Assembly: GCF_019884785.1 (NCBI RefSeq)
Contig: NZ_CP082326.1
Span: 2,659,355 to 2,723,354 of the forward strand
From: Crassaminicella profunda
Lineage (GTDB): Bacteria > Bacillota > Clostridia > Peptostreptococcales > Thermotaleaceae
Direction of reading: 5' to 3'
Length of the DNA: 64,000 nt
Shown: positions 1,355 to 14,063 of the stretch, piece by piece
How the letters are laid out: every line of letters starts with the position of its first letter
How positions within the stretch are numbered: position 1 is the stretch's first letter
Translations under genes and position numbers: made by a program
The notes under the pieces: model-generated
The model's input: the letters and a program-made list of their open reading frames with translations, nothing else
Databases searched by the model: none
What the model was told of the DNA's origin: nothing

Positions 1355-1519
1355 ATGAAAAAACAATCTATCTCAAGCACCATAGAGCTTGTCTATAGTG
1401 AAAATGAAAATGCAAAATTAAACTTTATTAAATTTATGGTGGATTATTTCATGGATCATCATATAGCTGAGGTGAATATGTATGACAACCAATTCTCAAC
1501 AAGTAATAAGAAAAATTGA
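1355..1519 (+). CDS. 54-residue protein leading into the recombinase cassette
   Basis: Short ORF with a near-perfect ribosome-binding site (AAGGAGGT at 1343-1350, four bases before ATG). It ends in TGA at 1517-1519 and overlaps the first recombinase gene by 38 bases in another frame. The protein starts MKKQSISSTIELVYSENE, is acidic and polar, and has no recognised domain, signal or membrane segment. The overlap suggests translational coupling, so it could be a small accessory or a leader for recombinase translation. No family recognised; the call rests on the ribosome-binding site and the tight linkage. Confidence 0.5.
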   Translation: MKKQSISSTIELVYSENENAKLNFIKFMVDYFMDHHIAEVNMYDNQFSTSNKKN

Positions 1520-3038
1520 TGACTACATAAGAAATAAAGATACTTTAGATAAGGATGGTCATAAAAAAACATTATTAGATCCTACACCTGAACATTATGC
1601 TGCCATTTATGCTAGAATATCAGGAAAAAATGACAGTTTTTCTTTAGATTCTCAGAAAGAAACCTGTACAAAGTTCATTGAAGAAAATAATCTACTTCTC
1701 TACAAAGTCTACCAAGACAAGGAATCAGCAAGAATAAAACATTTCTATGATCGAAAAGAGTTTAAAAAGCTTTTAAGTGATATGGAAACAGGCATGTTCA
1801 AAAACTTAGTACTCATTCGTAGGGATCGTCTCTCTAGAAGAATAGATGATTTCATGCACTTAAGAAGAATTTTTAAGAAGCATCATGTGAAAGTTTTTTA
1901 TGTAAAAGAAGGTAATCTCAATTTCGACAGTAGCTCTTACATCACAAATTTCTTAGAGAATATATTAATGTCCATCAGCACATTAGAGCCTGAGTATATT
2001 TATCAAAGAACCAAAGGAGGTAGACAAAATCTTAGATATAAAGGAATTTTCCAATGTGGCAATCCTCCCTTTGGTTATAGCAAGGTTAAAGGTAAAAAGC
2101 ATGACTTTGAGATTAACACAGATGAAGCAGAATTAGTCAAAAGGATATTTGCTACCTATAAAAGTTCTATCATCAAAGATTGCAATACCTTAGATGCCTT
2201 GATCGAAAGTTTAAACAGCAATCCTATTAAAAAAATCACTAAATCCTTCCTCAAAAGAATTCTACAACGTTCCATATACGGAGGAAAAATGATCATAGAA
2301 GAAGATGATTCCCTAGATGATTGTGTCATCTGGGATAAAGATAATGGACAGTATCTATTAGATGAAAAGAAATTTATGAAGTGTGAAAACTTTGCAAAGC
2401 TTGTAGATTGGAAAGACTGGAAAGAAGTATTCCTTCACTTCTATTTTCTTGAAAAAGGTCCGTTAGATCAGGACTATCTATTTAAAAATTTATTATATTG
2501 TAACACCTGCAAAGAACCTCTCATGCTTAAAAATGGATACTATATCTGTAAACAGCAATGTATGCAAGTTCACATAGATAATGTCATAGGAATAGTATTT
2601 GAACAGATTATTCATGAGATCAACGCCCAATATTTTCAGAGGATCTTTCAAACTAAGATTAAAAAGATCAACAAAAAACTTACTGAAGAAAAGAAAACAC
2701 TTGCTCAATCAAGAAAAAATATGAGAAATAAATTAGATGAATACATTATTACTAATGATACATCATTAAAAAAAGAAATAGCCTCCTTACAAAGTGATAT
2801 TCAATCAACTCAAGAAAATATTAATGAGGCAGGTAATGAAAAGCTTAAATTGCTAAATATTTTAAATAACCTGGATGCATTTAAGAAGCAATTAGGCACT
2901 TTTACGCCATCTGATATCCAATTCTTCAAAGAAAACTGGCAGGCTTATCACTATATGCTATCTAAATTCATTAAAAAGGTGGTGCTTAAAAAATCAAATG
3001 GACAAAATTTCAGTATCACAATTACCTATAAAAAATAA
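1482..3038 (+). CDS. large serine recombinase 1
   Basis: Protein of 518 residues. An N-terminal tail of about 38 residues precedes the resolvase domain (about 39-190), with catalytic Ser47 in YARIS, SLDSQ, and the RRDRLSRR arginine cluster. A recombinase domain follows (about 195-310), then a zinc-ribbon pair of cysteine knuckles (CNTC near residue 340 and two further cysteines near 355-360) and a coiled coil (about 385-450). This is the layout of large serine integrases such as TnpX and phiC31 Int, which cut att sites at a central dinucleotide. Its 3' end overlaps recombinase 2 by 41 bases, so the two are probably co-translated. Catalytic residues look intact. Confidence 0.92.
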   Translation: MTTNSQQVIRKIDDYIRNKDTLDKDGHKKTLLDPTPEHYAAIYARISGKNDSFSLDSQKETCTKFIEENNLLLYKVYQDKESARIKHFYDRKEFKKLLSDMETGMFKNLVLIRRDRLSRRIDDFMHLRRIFKKHHVKVFYVKEGNLNFDSSSYITNFLENILMSISTLEPEYIYQRTKGGRQNLRYKGIFQCGNPPFGYSKVKGKKHDFEINTDEAELVKRIFATYKSSIIKDCNTLDALIESLNSNPIKKITKSFLKRILQRSIYGGKMIIEEDDSLDDCVIWDKDNGQYLLDEKKFMKCENFAKLVDWKDWKEVFLHFYFLEKGPLDQDYLFKNLLYCNTCKEPLMLKNGYYICKQQCMQVHIDNVIGIVFEQIIHEINAQYFQRIFQTKIKKINKKLTEEKKTLAQSRKNMRNKLDEYIITNDTSLKKEIASLQSDIQSTQENINEAGNEKLKLLNILNNLDAFKKQLGTFTPSDIQFFKENWQAYHYMLSKFIKKVVLKKSNGQNFSITITYKK

Positions 3039-4617
3039 TCCTAAAGAAAAAGCCATTGCATATTTAAGAGTTTCTACAGAAGATCAGAAGAAAGATGGGC
3101 ATTCTATTGATTCACAAAAGGTATATGCTACAAAATACGCCCAAAAACACAAATATGAAATCATCCAATTTGTTGAAGAATACGAATCTGCCTCTAAAGT
3201 AAAGTTTGATGATATAGGCTGTGAAAACAATCTTTATATTGCTCTAAAGAATAGACCCAAACTACTAAAGATCATCACTTCAGTCAACCAATCAAAATTC
3301 AAGCACCTTATTGTCAGTACCCGTGACCGCCTTGCAAGAAATCTAGAAGTCTATGTAGGGATCAAGCTTTTTCTACAGAAAAAAGGCATAGAACTTCACT
3401 TTGCAAACCCTAGTGAATCTATGAATATTGAAAACAAAGGACTTGAAAAGTTTGTAGAATTAGTATTTGGTAGTATCGCTGAACTTGAAGCCAATCTTAT
3501 ATCCGATAGAGCCAGAGATGGTCTATCTCAAAAGGTCCGAGACGGCTATTGGCCTGCTGGATATCCCCCATATGGCTATGTTACAGAATGTATTAATCCA
3601 AATTCTCATAAGAAGAAACGGATTTTGGTTCCCTTATTAAACGAGCAAAAGTATATAGAAGAGATTTTCAGACTACACAATCAATACGGTTACAGCTACA
3701 GAAAAATAGCACAGCTTTTAAATGAACATGATAACACAAATCATTGGAACAAAAGTAAAATTAAAAGTATTATTACCAACGAAACTTATACAGGAAGAAT
3801 TGCATGGGGAAGGCGTAGTCGTAGAAGTTATGATGTAAACAATGCATCTATGGTATATTCTCCTGATGAACAATGTTCTGCATTTATTACAACTGATCAA
3901 TGGGAGCAAGCAAAAAATATACGGCATAAGAAAGTAAGTATGAAGGATTCTAAATACTACAGCACTCCATTTTTACTAAGAGATAAGCTTGCATGTGGTA
4001 ACTGTGGAGCTATTTTAAAAGCTAAAAACTATGGATTTTATAAAAATGGTAATCCTCGAGAAGGAGTTTATCGATGTGATTGTACAAAAAAGTTAAAAAA
4101 AGATGAAAAAATGATTCTTAAAAAAAGTATCATTGAAGAAAAATTCATAAATGACTTTTTAGCTAATCTGACTCCTGAAAAAACAAATATCATGTGGTAT
4201 TATTATTCCAAAACAAGAGATCGGATTTTGAAGGAAAATGAAGATAAGATCAAAAGAATTGATGAAGAATTTACAAAAAAAACACAGCACATCTCAAAAT
4301 TAGATGATTTAATCCAATGTGAAGACAATGAAACCATTCTTGAAGCCTTAAAGATTCAAAGACCTATTCTACAAAGAGAACTGGATATCCTAAAATCCTA
4401 TAAGGATGAATTAAATGCTATTACCGCTAATTCATTTAAAACTGAATCAGATTTAGTAGCTGCCTTGAAAAAATTATTCAAACAGGATTTTAAGCATCTA
4501 TCTAACGAACGAAAAAGGATGATCATAGATATGCTAATCGATAAGGTAGTTGTTACCAAGACAAACGATAACATCAAATTAACCATCTACATGGCGACAA
4601 ATATCAATATTTTATAG
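2998..4617 (+). CDS. large serine recombinase 2
   Basis: Protein of 539 residues. The resolvase domain (about 18-175) carries catalytic Ser26 in YLRVST, SIDSQ and TRDRLARN; the helix-E region has AELEANLISDRARDG. A recombinase domain with GYWPAGYPPYGY, a zinc ribbon (CGNC near residue 333 and CDC near 360) and a C-terminal coiled coil (about 395-470) follow. It starts inside the end of recombinase 1, which implies translational coupling. Paired or triple large serine recombinases are known from SCCmec (CcrA/CcrB) and from some integrative conjugative elements; a third copy lies at 11744. All catalytic signatures are present. Confidence 0.93.
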   Translation: MDKISVSQLPIKNNPKEKAIAYLRVSTEDQKKDGHSIDSQKVYATKYAQKHKYEIIQFVEEYESASKVKFDDIGCENNLYIALKNRPKLLKIITSVNQSKFKHLIVSTRDRLARNLEVYVGIKLFLQKKGIELHFANPSESMNIENKGLEKFVELVFGSIAELEANLISDRARDGLSQKVRDGYWPAGYPPYGYVTECINPNSHKKKRILVPLLNEQKYIEEIFRLHNQYGYSYRKIAQLLNEHDNTNHWNKSKIKSIITNETYTGRIAWGRRSRRSYDVNNASMVYSPDEQCSAFITTDQWEQAKNIRHKKVSMKDSKYYSTPFLLRDKLACGNCGAILKAKNYGFYKNGNPREGVYRCDCTKKLKKDEKMILKKSIIEEKFINDFLANLTPEKTNIMWYYYSKTRDRILKENEDKIKRIDEEFTKKTQHISKLDDLIQCEDNETILEALKIQRPILQRELDILKSYKDELNAITANSFKTESDLVAALKKLFKQDFKHLSNERKRMIIDMLIDKVVVTKTNDNIKLTIYMATNINIL

Positions 4618-5813: not shown

Positions 5814-7730
5814 TCAACATTCATGAACGTTATCTTTCCCAAACCACTCTTTAGCTTTATTTATTATTGATTGTGATGGATTATGATAAAAAACAATCAG
5901 ATTTTCCTTCGCTCTTGTACAACAAACATAAAAAATTTTTTGAGTTCTTAATAGGATTTTATTATATGATTTTTGTTTGCTCTTATTTAGAGAAGCATAT
6001 AGGCTATCATTTAATAAATATTCAAAATTATAATTATTCCATCCTCCACCATCTAAAATAACAAGTACATTATCAAATTCAGCCCCTTTAATTTTATGTT
6101 GAGTTGAAAAAGGGGTATACCCCTCTAAATAGTAATACAAATTTTGAAGCTCTTTAAATTTAACCTTTTTTACACGATTATAAATATATTCATTTTTTTC
6201 TACAAATTTATTAAATTTATCATCTTTTTTACAAATTCTTTCTTCATCTGCAAAGTCTATAACTTCTTCAATAGTACATTCCGACATAGATTTAATCTTC
6301 TCAATAATTGCTTTTACTTGCCTCTTTTTTGTTATTGAGTCTATTTTAACCTCTGTTTTTCTAATAAATTCACTATATTTTTTTTCTTCATATAATTGAA
6401 CGAGCAATTGTATTTTAAAAAGATGTTTTATTATATCATCTCTTTTAGACCCTTTTTTATTTTCATCATCCATATCGTCCTTTTTATCATCTATTAACGA
6501 ATCCTTATTTAAGTAGATTTTTCTCACATAAGAAAATGGTAAATCTTTAAGTTGTTCATATAATTCATTCTTATCTATATCTTCAACAATCAAATCAATC
6601 TTTAATTGTTTTTGTTTGTTTTTTACTGGAGCCAACTCTACTACTTGACTAAAGGTTGCATTTTCATCAACTGGAATTTTCTTTGTCTTAATTTTTTTTA
6701 GTATGTCATTTTTAAATTGTATAATTGGATCTTTATCATATATATTCATAAGTTCACTAAATCCTGCTTTAGGGGCTATTAAGTTATGTGTTAAATTCAA
6801 TTCTTTAGTTTCCTTAGCATCATCAAATCGCCAACCATGAAAATACTTAGTACCTCTTAATTTTCCTAAATTATTACTTGATGAATATAAAAACTTGATA
6901 TTACCTTGCTTAACTTGTCCATTCTCCATATTTGGAGCATTATTATCTTCTGATGGTTCTTGTATCAATCCATCTACTCTTACCTTGTTTGCTAAATTTA
7001 TAACTAGCTGAGGATTTCTTCTATTTTGAAGCTTTCGAACTTCTTGTACACTTTTTAAATCAATATACTTACTCAAGTCACCAATCCCATCTTCATAAAT
7101 AGATTGCATTGTATCACCAAAGAAACCAACAATACATTTTTTTCTACTTTGCTGAATATACTCTAGAAATATTTGTACAACTAATGGGCTTGTATCTTGA
7201 TATTCATCAATAAATATAAACTTATATTTATCTTTTAATATATCGCATAATACTTTATACTTCTTATACATGTAATTAGCTAATATAAGAACTTCATCAT
7301 GCGAAATTTCTCCTTTATTTATATTCAAATGCTCTTTATAACTTATTCCGTATTCAAATGTATTAACATACTCCTGTCAAATATCTGCACTCGGGTTTTT
7401 GATTTTACATTCTTTATCATTTATAAGTATCAAAAGTGATTTTTTAAGTTCTTTTTGAAATCTTTTTATATTATCCCATAAAAAATCATGAATTGTAGAC
7501 ACTCTTAAATTTTTATGATTAACCCTTTCTTCAATTTCTTTGACAGCAGCATTAGTATAGGTCATACAAGCTATCTGATCTGTAGGATGTTGCCTAATAG
7601 TTTCCTTTATAACTTGTACTAAAGAGTAAGTTTTACCACTGCCAGCACCTCCACTTAATAAAAAATTTTCTCCATTTTTAATATGCTCAAAAACTTTTTC
7701 AACTTCTAGTTCTAATCTTGCTTCAGCCAT
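5814..7730 (-). pseudogene. gajB: GajB-like UvrD/Rep helicase interrupted by one in-frame TGA
   Basis: Superfamily 1A helicase, 638 codons from ATG 7730 (AAAGGAGGG upstream, overlapping the end of the OLD gene by 19 bases) to 5814. Codon 118 (7379-7377) is TGA; the same frame continues without other stops. Motif I SGGAGSGKT (26-34) and motif Ia MTYTNAAVKEIEERV lie before the stop. Motif II DEYQDT (about 175-180), motif III GDTMQSIYEDG, motif V FSTQHKIKGAEFDNV and motif VI CCTRAKENL lie after it. An OLD nuclease followed by such a helicase defines Gabija (class 2 OLD), in which GajB activates the GajA nuclease on phage infection. As read, translation yields only a 117-residue Walker A fragment. 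A TTG at 7328 could reinitiate a 504-residue part with a poor ribosome site. Nonsense mutation, readthrough and sequencing error are all possible. Confidence 0.8.
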
Positions 7731-9949
7731 AACAAACCCTCCTTTATGTAATGGGGTATCTCCCAATTACTAAATTCATTTCCTTTTTTATCAGGTTTGC
7801 TATTAAGTAAAATTTCCATAGCAAAAGATGGTTTTTTACCTATACAATTTTCAGCTAAATCATATGCATCTTTAGTTAGATCATCGAAATATTTAATATG
7901 TTTCAAGCTTTTAAAATTTTCCTTATTCTCTATAATAAATTTTCTATTTACATGAAAAAAAGCGTCCTCAAAACTTCTAGCATGATATGAAGCTCCATTT
8001 TCATTTTCTTCAGAAACTTGATAAGTAACCGCTATCTCCCCGATTGCACTCTGCTCCCAATTATTTGTTTCTGAATTTCTTGTCAATTTCTTTTTTTCAA
8101 ATTCTAAATTCTTAAAATACTCTAATTCATCCTTAACATTTTCAGATGGTAATTCTTCTAAATACTTTGCACAAAAAAACTTTAATGAAGCATTTGTTGT
8201 TATTGTTCCATTTTCACCATCTACCCTACATGGAGCTGGCACAAATTTTACATTCCCCTCTTTTTTTATTTCACTCTTTTCATCTTTCTTTTTTTTCTCT
8301 ACTAGCTTTGCTGAATCTATATCTGTTATAATTAATGCCTTTATTCCAATAAAATCAATAAACCGTTCAAATATATGAGAATATGCACCTACTTCAACAA
8401 CTGAAATATTTTGTGACAGCATTGGGACTCCATTATCTTTTTCCATTTGATCAATTTTTTTCATCATTGCAGGTAACAATATTCGTTCCGTATCACCTTC
8501 AATTAATATTGCTTTATCTGCAAAAAATAATTCAGAACGATTTAAAGTTAAATATTGTTTTAAAAATTTAAATTGCTGTCTTCCCTTTTCTTCGGCCTTA
8601 GAATACTCTAACTCTAAATCTTTTAAATTTTTTGCAAGAACACACCCTTGTTTTTTCTTATAAAAATATTTTATATCATTAAAATCACTTTCAGACGTTA
8701 TATGAGAAGAGTGTGTTGTAATAACGGTTTGCATGTCAAATGAATTTTTACCTTCACTACCATTACACCCATCTCTCAAAATATCTTTAATATTTTTTAT
8801 AAATACATACTGCATCTGTGGATGAGTATGTGCTTCTGGCTCTTCAATAAAAAACAAATTAATATCTGCTGGCTTTTGGTTTTCTTTTCCGTCCTTTCTA
8901 AATTCGCTCAAGTCCACTTCTATTTCAAAAATCATGCTAATCAAATTTAAGTACCCTAATCCATTATAATTCTCTGGTAGCAAATTAGCATCATTATGAT
9001 TATACATTACTGTTGTATTTCCTTTTAGTAATTCTTTGCGTTTTAGTGAAGACACTATCTGAATAACCGATTCGCCAGGTTTTATACCTCCAAATTTTTT
9101 TACTTTCCCCACAACATTATCAAATAAATTGTCATATATTTTATTTAACTGCCTATCCGTACTAACAATTTGATCTTTAAATTTATCTATTGCTACCTTT
9201 TGTTCATCATTTTCCTCAATCTTTTCATAGTATTTCGATGAAAGCACTGAAAGTGTATTATCAGTTTCTACGTTTGAAACCGACCTACGTGCACTTATAT
9301 ATTTAAATCTAATAATCTTCTCTAAGTTTATTTTATTCTTATCCAAATCTATATACTCATCATTTTTTTCTTTTTTATCGATTAAATCATATGCAATAGA
9401 TTTTTTTGAAGATTTAAAGAATTTCTTATATTCATTTTTAATAAAATTTCCAAAATAATGTTTAGCTAATTCATCTCTATTTTCATATTTTTCATCTGCT
9501 TTTACACGATTGTCTTTATATTTATTATATTCATCTTTTAACTTATTAAATTCATCTTGAGATAAAGTATATTCAAACCCCAAAACTACATTTTGATTAT
9601 CAGGGTCTAAGTCCATTATAACCTCACTTATATTAGATAAATCATCATCTTCATGATATTGTATAAACAGTTTCATAGAAATCCCTATAGGGAAAAATGT
9701 ATCATTTTCTATTGGACTATAATTACTTTCTACTTTTTCTTTCAACTCTTTCTGAAAATCAATATTAAAATCATCGTATGTAAAATTGTTTATATTTGAT
9801 TTATTTCCAATAAATTTATCTAAAATAGATAGTAATGAAGTTTTTCCACAGTTATTTTTACCAATAACTACAGATAAATCATCTTCTAAATCAAGATCAA
9901 ATTGTTTTAGCAAACGAAAGTTTTCTATTTTTATTTTCGAAATTTTCAT
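7712..9949 (-). CDS. gajA: GajA-like OLD-family ATPase/TOPRIM endonuclease
   Basis: Protein of 745 residues. The ATPase half has Walker A GKNNCGKT (30-37), Walker B NLFFIEEPEAH (about 364-374) and the H-switch TTHSSH (411-416). The TOPRIM half has ILIEGDTE (Glu484) and IITDIDSAK (Asp543, Asp545), the metal-binding acidic residues, and a late RSFEDAFF motif (about 658-665) typical of OLD proteins. In Gabija, GajA forms a tetramer that nicks DNA when nucleotide levels fall during phage replication. At 745 residues it is longer than the roughly 580 of the Bacillus prototype; the extra length is in lysine-rich insertions at about 100-215 and 550-650. The helicase gene overlaps its 3' end. This gene is intact. 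Confidence 0.88.
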   Translation of the reverse strand: MKISKIKIENFRLLKQFDLDLEDDLSVVIGKNNCGKTSLLSILDKFIGNKSNINNFTYDDFNIDFQKELKEKVESNYSPIENDTFFPIGISMKLFIQYHEDDDLSNISEVIMDLDPDNQNVVLGFEYTLSQDEFNKLKDEYNKYKDNRVKADEKYENRDELAKHYFGNFIKNEYKKFFKSSKKSIAYDLIDKKEKNDEYIDLDKNKINLEKIIRFKYISARRSVSNVETDNTLSVLSSKYYEKIEENDEQKVAIDKFKDQIVSTDRQLNKIYDNLFDNVVGKVKKFGGIKPGESVIQIVSSLKRKELLKGNTTVMYNHNDANLLPENYNGLGYLNLISMIFEIEVDLSEFRKDGKENQKPADINLFFIEEPEAHTHPQMQYVFIKNIKDILRDGCNGSEGKNSFDMQTVITTHSSHITSESDFNDIKYFYKKKQGCVLAKNLKDLELEYSKAEEKGRQQFKFLKQYLTLNRSELFFADKAILIEGDTERILLPAMMKKIDQMEKDNGVPMLSQNISVVEVGAYSHIFERFIDFIGIKALIITDIDSAKLVEKKKKDEKSEIKKEGNVKFVPAPCRVDGENGTITTNASLKFFCAKYLEELPSENVKDELEYFKNLEFEKKKLTRNSETNNWEQSAIGEIAVTYQVSEENENGASYHARSFEDAFFHVNRKFIIENKENFKSLKHIKYFDDLTKDAYDLAENCIGKKPSFAMEILLNSKPDKKGNEFSNWEIPHYIKEGLLWLKQD

Positions 9950-10184: not shown

Positions 10185-11261
10185 TTAGTTTATATACATA
10201 TTCAATCCACTACTCTTAATTTTTTCAACTTCAATTCCTTTTTTCTTAGCCTCCTGTTCAAATTCATCCATATTTGGAATATAACCGCCCTGAATGCTAA
10301 TCTTTTCTAAATGCTCTAATTCAAATACTTTACTAATATCTGTAATTCACAATTCATAGAAATCTAATTCCTTTAGCTGTGGGAATTTTTCGATACCATC
10401 AAAACTTATTACTTTCCCATCTGCAATATTTAATCTTTCTAAATTAGCTGGTCCTTCTAGTCCTATCAAATCCTCAAAATCCATACCTTGCACGTCAAAC
10501 CTTTTTAGATTTGGAAAATTATCTAAACTATCTATTTTACCACCTTTAGGATATAGGATTTCAAGCCTCTCCAGAGATTCCATATTATCAATTTTCTCAA
10601 GTTTATCTACATTTGCATACCAAACCAATAGATGTTTTAAATTACTCAACTTTCCAATAGGTCTAAAATCATGAATGATGAAGCCATCAGATATGTATAT
10701 ATACTCAACATCTTTAAAATTTTCAATCCCATCTAGATTATTTATACGATCATCATCATCTAACCCTAATTTTCCTATCCCCTTTAAATCCTCTTCTTCT
10801 ACTTTTCCCTTAATGTTATATTCCTTTTTTACATATCTATAAAAATTTTTATCTTTGATAATATTATTTGCATACATATAATAATCTACAGAAAAAAATC
10901 CAATCAATAGTATAATAATTAAAATCTTTTTTTGTAGCTTATATGTTACGTTCTCTTTGTTGAAAGCATTAATAATAATCCATGAAAATCCACTAAAAAC
11001 AAGGATATAATTAGGTATGTATATCCCATATCTAAAAAGAATATAATTACCAATCATCATAGTTGAAAAAATAATTCCTTCTTTCTCTTTTGTATTTTTT
11101 GTTGCTTTTCTTATTAAACGAGATATCAAAAAACCTATCCAAACAGCTGGAAACGCTCCGTCAAAAGAAGTATCCCTTATAAATAAATGTACCCACATTA
11201 AACCTATTATAAAGATTACTGACCAAAAGCTATCTTTTTTGTACCATTTTTTAGTTTCCAT
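10185..11261 (-). pseudogene. membrane leucine-rich-repeat protein with an in-frame TGA
   Basis: The frame from ATG 11261 reads 304 residues to TGA at 10349-10347, then continues 53 more codons in the same frame to TAA at 10185. The N-terminal 135 residues hold about four membrane helices. The outer part (about 160-304) consists of short leucine-rich repeats of the internalin-like type, with units such as FKDVEYIYIS, LSNLKHLLVWY, MESLERLEILY, FPNLKRFDVQG and FPQLKELDFYEL. The residues after the TGA (ITDISKVFELEHLEKISI) continue the repeat register exactly, so the TGA interrupts a real gene. Function unknown; it may be a surface or sensing protein carried by the element. The protein as read lacks only its last repeat and cap and might still fold. 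Confidence 0.7.
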
Positions 11262-11580: not shown

Positions 11581-11743
11581 ATTTGTACATCCCCCTTCTT
11601 TATCTAATTAATATTAAGAAATGGGTTTGTACTATTCCAATTTGTGTAATATTGTCCACTTCATTGATGTATTTATAAATAATACAAGTACTAAAATCCC
11701 GCTGTTGCGTAAAAATATGAATAACTACTTATACAAGGAGGTG

Positions 11744-13363
11744 ATGAACATATCAACCATTGCCATATATTCTCGTAAATCGAAAGCTACTGAAAAAGGT
11801 GAATCTATCCAAAATCAGATAGACCTTTGCAGAGATTATGCAAAGAAGCATTTCCAAGGAAATAATTTTCTTATTTATGAAGATGAAGGCTACTCTGGTG
11901 GGAATAGTAATCGACCTAAGTTTCAAAAGATGCTAAAGGATTTAAAAAAGAAAAAGTTCCAGGTCCTTATTTGCTATCGGTTGGATCGGATCAGCAGAAA
12001 TATTTCTGATTTCTCAAGTTTAGTTGCTCTCCTTCAAGAGTACAATATTGATTTTGTATCCATTCGAGAACAATTCGATACTTCTACTCCTATGGGACGT
12101 GCCATGATGTATATTACTTCTGTATTTGCACAGCTTGAAAGAGAAACCATTGCTGAAAGAATCAGAGATAATATGTTAGCCCTAGCTAGAACAGGCAGGT
12201 GGCTTGGGGGAAAGACTCCTATGGGATTTAAGAGTAAAGGAAGTACATATTTCAATGTAGAAAATACAAAGAAGAAAATGTATCACCTTACTCCCATTCA
12301 CAAGGAACTAGAATTAGTAAAAGTCTTTTATAAAAAATATTTAGAACTAGGTTCCCTTACAAAACTTGAAAGCTGGGCATTAGAAAGTCACATAAAAACG
12401 AGGAACAATAAAGACTTTGATAAAAGTATTTTAAAAGTCATTCTTACTAATCCTGTTTATGTTATAGGGAATAAAGTAATATATGGGTATTTTCAAAATC
12501 TTGGTGCTGATATCGCTAACAAGGCTGAAGAATTTGATGGTACGCATGGGCTCATGGTCTATAATAAGCATGATGAAAAGAAAAATAGGATTGTAAGAAA
12601 AGATCCTTCTGAATGGGTAGTTGCTATAGGAAATCATGAAGGTATCATTCCTTCTCATGAGTGGATACGAGTACAAAATTTATTAGAGGGAAACAGCCAA
12701 AAAGCTCCTCGAGTAGGTACTAGCAATATTGGATTGATTACCACATTACTGCGGTGTAAAAACTGTGGTTCTAAGATGAGAATTTCCATATCTAAAAAAG
12801 AATATGGAACCTATTATTACTATAAATGCTTAATGAAAGAAAGATCAAGGGGTAGTCGTTGCAATATTAAAAATTTAAATGGTAATGAAGCAGATGAATT
12901 TGTGGTGAATGAACTGAAAAAAATGAGTCATGCAAATCATGATTTTTATCAGTTCCTTTTGAATGAAAGAAAGAAATTAAACAATTTATCTACTGTAAAC
13001 AACGTTGATAAAGATAAGCTTTATGAAGAATTAAAAGAATGCAAAGCTGCGATTGGTAACTTAACCTTACAGTTAGCAAAGAATCAAGATTCAAAGGCAT
13101 CCAAATATATCATTGAGCAGATAGAAACCTTTGATGATAAAATTGCTGATATACAAAACGAATTAGAAAATACAAACGAAAAAAAAGAATCTACAAATCT
13201 ACAAAAAATAAATATAGAGATACTACTCAGTCTTATAAAAGATTTTGCAAGTAATGTAGATACTCTTACTTTTCATGAAAAGAAGAAAATAATGAATGAA
13301 ATCATCGATGAAATTACTTGGGATGGTAAAACTTTAGAAATTAATATTTTACCCCATCTTTAA
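11744..13363 (+). CDS. large serine recombinase 3
   Basis: Protein of 539 residues from ATG 11744. The frame is open upstream (alternative ATG 11717), but homology to resolvases begins at ISTIAIYSRKS, and a strong AAGGAGGTG lies directly before the chosen ATG, unusually close. Resolvase domain about 5-150 with catalytic Ser13, ESIQNQ, YRLDRISRN and TPMGRAMMYI-type helix E. A recombinase domain with GRWLGGKTPMGF follows, then a zinc ribbon (CKNC near residue 338, later cysteines in CLMKERSRGSRC) and a long coiled coil (about 400-480). This is the recombinase closest to the element's right boundary, roughly 500 bases away, a usual place for an integrase next to its att site. Confidence 0.92.
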   Translation: MNISTIAIYSRKSKATEKGESIQNQIDLCRDYAKKHFQGNNFLIYEDEGYSGGNSNRPKFQKMLKDLKKKKFQVLICYRLDRISRNISDFSSLVALLQEYNIDFVSIREQFDTSTPMGRAMMYITSVFAQLERETIAERIRDNMLALARTGRWLGGKTPMGFKSKGSTYFNVENTKKKMYHLTPIHKELELVKVFYKKYLELGSLTKLESWALESHIKTRNNKDFDKSILKVILTNPVYVIGNKVIYGYFQNLGADIANKAEEFDGTHGLMVYNKHDEKKNRIVRKDPSEWVVAIGNHEGIIPSHEWIRVQNLLEGNSQKAPRVGTSNIGLITTLLRCKNCGSKMRISISKKEYGTYYYYKCLMKERSRGSRCNIKNLNGNEADEFVVNELKKMSHANHDFYQFLLNERKKLNNLSTVNNVDKDKLYEELKECKAAIGNLTLQLAKNQDSKASKYIIEQIETFDDKIADIQNELENTNEKKESTNLQKINIEILLSLIKDFASNVDTLTFHEKKKIMNEIIDEITWDGKTLEINILPHL

Positions 13364-13871: not shown

Positions 13872-14063
13872 GAAGACATAGCAGAAGCTATATCTATGGC
13901 AGATAGAGTAGTCGTTCTCTCCAAAAGACCTGCTATGGTAAAAAGTATTCATGAAATTCATCTAACACTTGAAAACGAAAGAACACCTCTTTCTTCTAGA
14001 GAAGCTCCTGAATTTAGACATTATTTTAATTCTATATGGAAGGAGCTTGATGTTCATGTTTGA
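13872..14063 (+). pseudogene. ABC-transporter ATPase, C-terminal fragment cut by the mobile element
   Basis: A 63-residue coding end that reads EDIAEAISMADRVVVLSKRP and ends in TGA at 14061-14063. This matches the segment after the H-loop of SsuB/TauB-type ATPases, where intact proteins read THDI..AI..ADRV.VLS..P. Walker A, signature and Walker B are absent, and the residues before Glu-Asp-Ile (encoded upstream of 13872) no longer match, so homology stops abruptly. The stop codon overlaps the start of the permease gene by eight bases, as in an intact operon. The simplest reading is that the mobile element to the left inserted here; the 5' part should lie left of the window. Confidence 0.78.

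What the first reader, a model, noticed from the sequence alone, without database searches (positions are those of the whole stretch)
5814..9949. Gabija-like defence pair whose helicase carries one in-frame TGA
The OLD-type GajA gene (7712-9949) is intact. The overlapping GajB-like helicase has all SF1 motifs in one frame from 7730 to 5814, except that codon 118 (7379-7377) is TGA, between motif Ia and motif II. No other stop or frameshift is present. Known Gabija needs both proteins. Options are recent inactivation (cost of autoimmunity), stop-codon readthrough (the TGA is followed by C, a context known to be leaky), or internal initiation at TTG 7328 giving a helicase without its P-loop part, an unusual split architecture.
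Basis: partly seen in the sequence, partly recalled or inferred. Interest (0 to 1): 0.75.

Follow-up and report, generated by a model that had tools for sequence, protein, structure and literature searches.

The report
Gabija defence pair, helicase gene broken
This bacterial chromosome carries a two-gene anti-phage system on a probable mobile element in which the nuclease gene is whole but the helicase gene is cut short by a single stop codon, most likely an ordinary, recent loss of function.

Summary
Window 7712-9949 (-) is an uninterrupted GajA-type OLD nuclease. The GajB-type SF1 helicase runs 7730-5814 (-) with one in-frame TGA at 7379-7377 (codon 118) and no other break. Both helicase pieces and the nuclease match PADLOC Gabija models strongly. 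All 8 named relatives found have an uninterrupted helicase. The stop lies in a poorly conserved loop.

Unusual decoding finds no support: no ribosome-binding site for TTG 7328, no hairpin behind the TGA although the host has a tRNA-Sec, and no break at this place in the other 40 loci. Of 41 Gabija-like loci, one gene is broken in 4: gajB in 3 (this nonsense, an insertion, a deletion with frame change), gajA in 1. One-partner decay is thus a background event. The downstream half still looks constrained (omega 0.18; gajA 0.195), so the stop is recent or the piece is still used; sequence alone cannot separate these. Best reading: recent nonsense inactivation of gajB on an ~18-kb integrative element. 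Interest is low to moderate.

The parts
7712..9949 (-). gajA: OLD-family nuclease, 745 aa, intact (N-terminal ATPase, OLD TOPRIM domain)
   Evidence: open frame; Pfam AAA_15 5.4e-65 and OLD-like_TOPRIM 1.3e-15; PADLOC GajA PDLC00079 1.9e-288; best structural matches of its model are solved GajA chains
7380..7730 (-). gajB piece upstream of the stop, 117 codons: start, P-loop GGAGSGKT, TYTN (motif Ia, name recalled)
   Evidence: PADLOC GajB PDLC00135 8.6e-51; SD -12.5 kcal/mol
7377..7379 (-). in-frame TGA, codon 118 of gajB, in a variable loop
   Evidence: whole-genome profile match reports 1 TGA inside
5814..7376 (-). gajB piece downstream of the stop, 520 codons and stop: DEYQD (motif II) and later helicase motifs (names recalled)
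   Evidence: PADLOC GajB PDLC00115 4.8e-235 for 7328-5817; omega 0.18 against L002
1482..3038 (+). large serine recombinase of the same island
   Evidence: Resolvase 1.6e-23
2998..4617 (+). large serine recombinase of the same island
   Evidence: Resolvase 1e-22, Recombinase 1.7e-14
11621..13363 (+). large serine recombinase next to the right border, the likely integrase (inference)
   Evidence: Resolvase 1.1e-39, Recombinase 4e-17, Zn_ribbon_recom 7.7e-11
13875..13891 (+). right border of the ~18-kb island: 17-bp match to the left border (L026 15844), inside an interrupted ABC-ATPase gene
   Evidence: gene continuous at this point in L106, L108, L110

Best explanation
A Gabija-type anti-phage operon, carried on a probable ~18-kb serine-recombinase integrative element, whose helicase gene gajB has recently been inactivated by a nonsense codon, leaving gajA intact. 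Shown: the stop, the otherwise open frame, uninterrupted gajB in relatives, and a background of broken partners in other Gabija-like loci. Inferred: the 117-aa product (P-loop and motif Ia only) cannot work as the helicase subunit, so the system gives no Gabija defence in this strain; GajA alone would persist as an idle, probably harmless nuclease until it decays too.
For: One TGA and no other break. 8 of 8 named relatives are uninterrupted. 4 of 41 Gabija-like loci have one partner broken: gajB in 3, by three different kinds of lesion at three places, gajA in 1. No SD for TTG 7328. No structure after the TGA (z 0.26). Under neutrality the chance of no further stop is 0.30, 0.09 and 0.03 at 0.01, 0.02 and 0.03 substitutions per site, so inactivation would be recent. 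[quoted passage not shown]
Against: The downstream piece looks as constrained as gajA (omega 0.18 against 0.195; amino-acid changes 16 on the window branch against 13 on the L002 branch). The stop falls in a low-conservation loop (60 of 638 positions as low or lower; mean pLDDT 58 in residues 111-120 of the L002 model), where a cut chain or any inserted residue could be tolerated. Raw reads and other strains were not available.
Confidence: 0.76

Rival explanations
1. Stop-codon readthrough of the TGA (TGA followed by C) yields enough full-length helicase for a working or tuned-down Gabija.
For: TGA-C context (its leakiness is recalled); continued constraint downstream; a variable loop that may accept any residue.
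Against: None of the other 40 loci has a stop at this place. No structure after the stop. Constraint is equally explained by a recent mutation.
Confidence: 0.09
2. Split helicase: the 117-aa P-loop piece and a separately started C-terminal piece assemble.
For: The break is in a loop between helices 92-104 and 119-122 of the L002 model; both pieces are conserved.
Against: TTG 7328 has no SD (-2.1 kcal/mol, random median -2.7). Of the in-frame candidates scanned to about codon 209, the best SD scores are at ATT 7307 (-9.1, not a usual start, only two bases behind GGAG) and ATG 7109 (-7.2, already past motif II). No relative is split at this place.
Confidence: 0.04
3. Base-calling or assembly error; the helicase is intact.
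For: Only one genome of the species is held; reads were not examined.
Against: A substitution-type stop with no indel against L002; the genome is a single contig, 98.46% complete.
Confidence: 0.09
4. Programmed decoding of the TGA as selenocysteine.
For: The host genome has a tRNA-Sec match at 74.5 bits, cut-off 47.
Against: No SECIS-like fold; none of 13 aligned relatives has Cys in the loop; no role for Sec in an SF1 helicase is known to me (recalled, not searched).
Confidence: 0.01

Closest known systems
Gabija anti-phage system (GajA-GajB), PADLOC models PDLC00079 / PDLC00135 / PDLC00115
   Same: gajA followed by an overlapping gajB; OLD ATPase-TOPRIM nuclease; UvrD-like SF1 helicase
   Different: gajB interrupted by TGA; both proteins are remote by sequence from the solved B. 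cereus VD045 pair: the GajA profile finds no GajA chain at 0.001, the GajB profile finds GajB chains at 5.6e-12 and weaker, below PcrA and UvrD
Gabija-like locus of Clostridium uliginosum DSM 12992 (L002)
   Same: 80.4% amino-acid identity in GajA, 87.2% in the upstream and 82.3% in the downstream GajB piece, no indels
   Different: gajB uninterrupted, 638 aa
Other Gabija-like loci with a broken gajB (G668 = L069, G565 = L070)
   Same: gajA open, gajB broken
   Different: an insertion holding a 264-aa ORF that looks like a transposase (judged by eye) near codon 543 (L069); about 85 codons missing with a frame change after codon ~367 (L070)

Membership tests
Gabija | GajA: OLD ATPase with TOPRIM nuclease domain | tested here: met
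   Foldseek best hits of the window's GajA model (pLDDT 77) are solved GajA chains, 8x5i_B E 3.2e-16 and 8sm3_A 1.2e-14, TM-scores only 0.37-0.49
Gabija | GajB: UvrD-like SF1 helicase encoded directly downstream of gajA | tested here: met
   the model of the intact relative L002 is, however, closer to UvrD (best 1.2e-18) than to solved GajB (8sm3_B 7.1e-12, rank 27)
Gabija | both genes able to make full-length proteins | tested here: not met
   TGA at codon 118 of gajB
Gabija | 4:4 GajA-GajB complex and phage protection | not testable with these tools
   needs experiments; described in PMC10781630 (passages)
Recoded (selenocysteine) gene | SECIS hairpin directly after the UGA | tested here: not met
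   65 bases at 7318-7382: z 0.26, 115 of 200 shuffles fold at least as well
Split-gene helicase | own translation start for the second piece | tested here: not met
   no SD at TTG 7328; for weaker candidates
Split-gene helicase | same split in relatives | tested here: not met
   0 of the other 40 loci are broken at this place

The most novel reading that the evidence does not exclude
The TGA is a tolerated regulatory break: low-level readthrough, or assembly of two pieces cut in a surface loop, gives a dosed-down but working Gabija in which the nuclease is kept at full level and the helicase is limiting.
Probability: 0.1. Interest if true: 0.65.

Novelty: new member of a known kind. Interest (0 to 1): 0.24.

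Why it matters
If ordinary, it is one more data point that defence genes can decay partner by partner, and a warning that annotation by fragment-tolerant models can call a dead Gabija 'present' (inference). If the stop were functional, it would be an unusual case of translation-level dosing of a defence helicase.

Tried and rejected
Selenocysteine: rejected. Internal start: not supported. A conserved split architecture: rejected for the 40 other loci seen. Relaxed constraint as a sign of old decay: not seen. Asymmetry 'gajB breaks, gajA stays': 3 against 1 in 41 loci, too few to claim; the loci were found through gajB, so a lone gajA with no gajB left would have been missed. Viral contigs: no match to the six exact peptide patterns used. 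Plasmids: 89 records, all under 60% identity, 4 covering at least 80% of the query; not followed further. Literature: in the listings no title or abstract start named this locus. PMC12322248 (passages) says in a table note that defence systems in which at least one gene was a pseudogene were left out of homolog counts, so such systems are known there. Passages of PMC9148166 and PMC12407980 gave nothing on a broken gajB. A search on serine-recombinase hotspots (listing only) was not followed.

Full report
Observation. On the minus strand, gajA (9949-7712) is open over 745 codons. gajB starts at ATG 7730 with a strong Shine-Dalgarno site, overlaps the end of gajA, and is open to its end at 5814 except for TGA at 7379-7377, codon 118. 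The upstream piece carries GGAGSGKT and TYTN, the downstream piece DEYQD and later SF1 motifs (motif names recalled). The pieces and GajA match PADLOC Gabija models far beyond chance. Pfam gives UvrD-helicase for both pieces, and AAA_15 plus OLD-like TOPRIM for GajA.

Relatives. A scan of one genome for each of 84,980 species (number from the tool's description) with six exact peptide patterns of the downstream piece matched 14 stretches, of which 8 encode a relative. All 8 have an uninterrupted gajB beside an uninterrupted gajA. The closest, in Clostridium uliginosum, is 80% identical in GajA and 82% in the downstream helicase piece. The aligned position falls in a stretch where 13 relatives differ in sequence and length. 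In the AlphaFold model of the L002 helicase (mean pLDDT 85.9) it lies between helices 92-104 and 119-122, in a block with mean pLDDT 58; by position this corresponds to subdomain 1B / Nacc of solved GajB (inference from PMC10681800 passages). Smoothed conservation there is low but not unique: 60 of 638 positions are as low or lower.

Is the downstream piece still constrained? Against L002, dN/dS (Nei-Gojobori, own script) is 0.195 for gajA, 0.11 for the upstream piece and 0.18 for the downstream piece. With L003 and L004 as outgroups, amino-acid changes placed on the window branch against the L002 branch are 12:16, 3:0 and 16:13; the other differing sites could not be placed. Silent divergence is 0.54-0.58. 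So most of the divergence probably accumulated while the gene was under selection (inference). With 361 one-step routes to a stop in 637 codons, absence of any second stop becomes unlikely (0.027) at 0.03 neutral substitutions per site (equal base-change rates assumed, indels ignored). The stop is therefore recent, or the piece is still used.

Unusual decoding. The 65 bases around and after the TGA fold no better than shuffles (z 0.26), although the genome has a tRNA-Sec (74.5 bits), and none of 13 aligned relatives has Cys in the loop. The first ATG, GTG or TTG in frame downstream, TTG 7328, has no ribosome-binding site (-2.1 kcal/mol; random 20-mers: median -2.7, best 5% at -8.8 or below; 22 of 25 picked ORF starts at -8.3 or below). 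ATT 7307 (-9.1) and ATG 7109 (-7.2) score better but are an unusual start at poor spacing and a start past motif II. Readthrough at a low level cannot be tested by sequence.

Base rate. Profile searches with PDLC00135 hit 9 of 391 genomes of the class, 14 of 398 of the class of G002 and 12 of 398 of the phylum at 1e-40; these were drawn evenly from larger groups. In the family, 16 of 16 hit at 1e-10; the weaker rows, mostly with frames of about 700-770 or about 1,100 aa, I took for other UvrD-type helicases without testing, and kept only the window and G011 from that call. After removing repeats (G000 and G058 seen more than once, G002 = L004, G1089 = G436) and adding the 8 named loci, 41 loci were judged by ORF and profile coverage; two of them lie in one genome, G668. 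G607 gives the same scores as G436 but was counted; nameless genomes could overlap with named ones. In 37 of 41 both genes are single open frames. gajB is broken in 3: the window; L069, where an insertion with a transposase-like ORF lies near codon 543; and L070, with missing codons and a frame change. gajA is broken in 1 (L092). None of the other 40 is broken at the window's place. One-partner decay in about a tenth of these loci makes the window's case ordinary.

Membership. The pair is Gabija by gene order, domains and PADLOC models, but it is a divergent clade. The GajA profile finds no solved GajA by sequence at 0.001, while the best structural matches of its model are solved GajA chains, with modest TM-scores. 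The GajB profile and model match PcrA/UvrD better than solved GajB. As it stands, the locus does not meet the requirement of two full-length proteins. Literature passages say that both are essential in vivo and that GajA alone cuts DNA in vitro (PMC10681800; PMC10781630); these concern the B. cereus pair, not this clade.

Setting. The pair sits in a probable element of about 18 kb (G+C 0.285 against 0.313 and 0.315 in the flanks). Its borders are a 17-bp match at L026 15844 and window 13875 inside an ABC-transporter ATPase gene. Cargo includes a McrBC-type protein with an AAA_5 partner, a Cas4-like nuclease and three large serine recombinases. The neighbouring permease was found in 13 of 16 family genomes and 8 loci were held. 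Of these 8 (own genome included), the ATPase frame is cut at the same place in L103 (own), L104, L105 and L109, continuous in L106, L108 and L110, and the motif was not found in L107. This looks like a shared integration site.

Mechanism and verdict. Most likely the stop ended a working Gabija recently; the 117-aa product lacks motif II onward and would not act. GajA probably persists by inertia. Confidence 0.76. Readthrough, split assembly and sequencing error remain as rivals at 0.09, 0.04 and 0.09.

Noticed in passing
L026 15844 to window 13891: Probable ~18-kb integrative element in an ABC-transporter ATPase gene; the gene is cut at the same point in three other same-family genomes (L104, L105, L109), a possible recurrent site for serine-recombinase elements. 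What those three carry was not examined.
   Followed up: partly
L026 11814-15899: Repeats of about 2 kb next to the left border (pieces 84-92% alike): two truncated copies of the ABC-ATPase 5' part plus a third fragment, and two similar 314- and 318-aa genes that look like Rpn-family proteins (name recalled, not tested).
   Followed up: partly
L026 16014-19236: McrBC-type protein (PF10117 4.2e-80) and an AAA_5 protein on the same element.
   Followed up: partly
window 1482-4617: Two large serine recombinases in tandem with overlapping ends (2998-3038), after a Cas4-like PD-(D/E)XK nuclease (443-1219).
   Followed up: no
window 10347-11261: Protein with leucine-rich repeats and a hydrophobic first half (by eye) between gajA and the third recombinase; no PADLOC match at 1e-4.
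   Followed up: no
PADLOC model PDLC00115: From the match positions this 537-position GajB model seems to start about 95 residues into the protein, after the P-loop, so it may rest on truncated members and could call a broken gajB as present.
   Followed up: no
L092: Gabija-like locus with gajA in three pieces beside a whole gajB.
   Followed up: no
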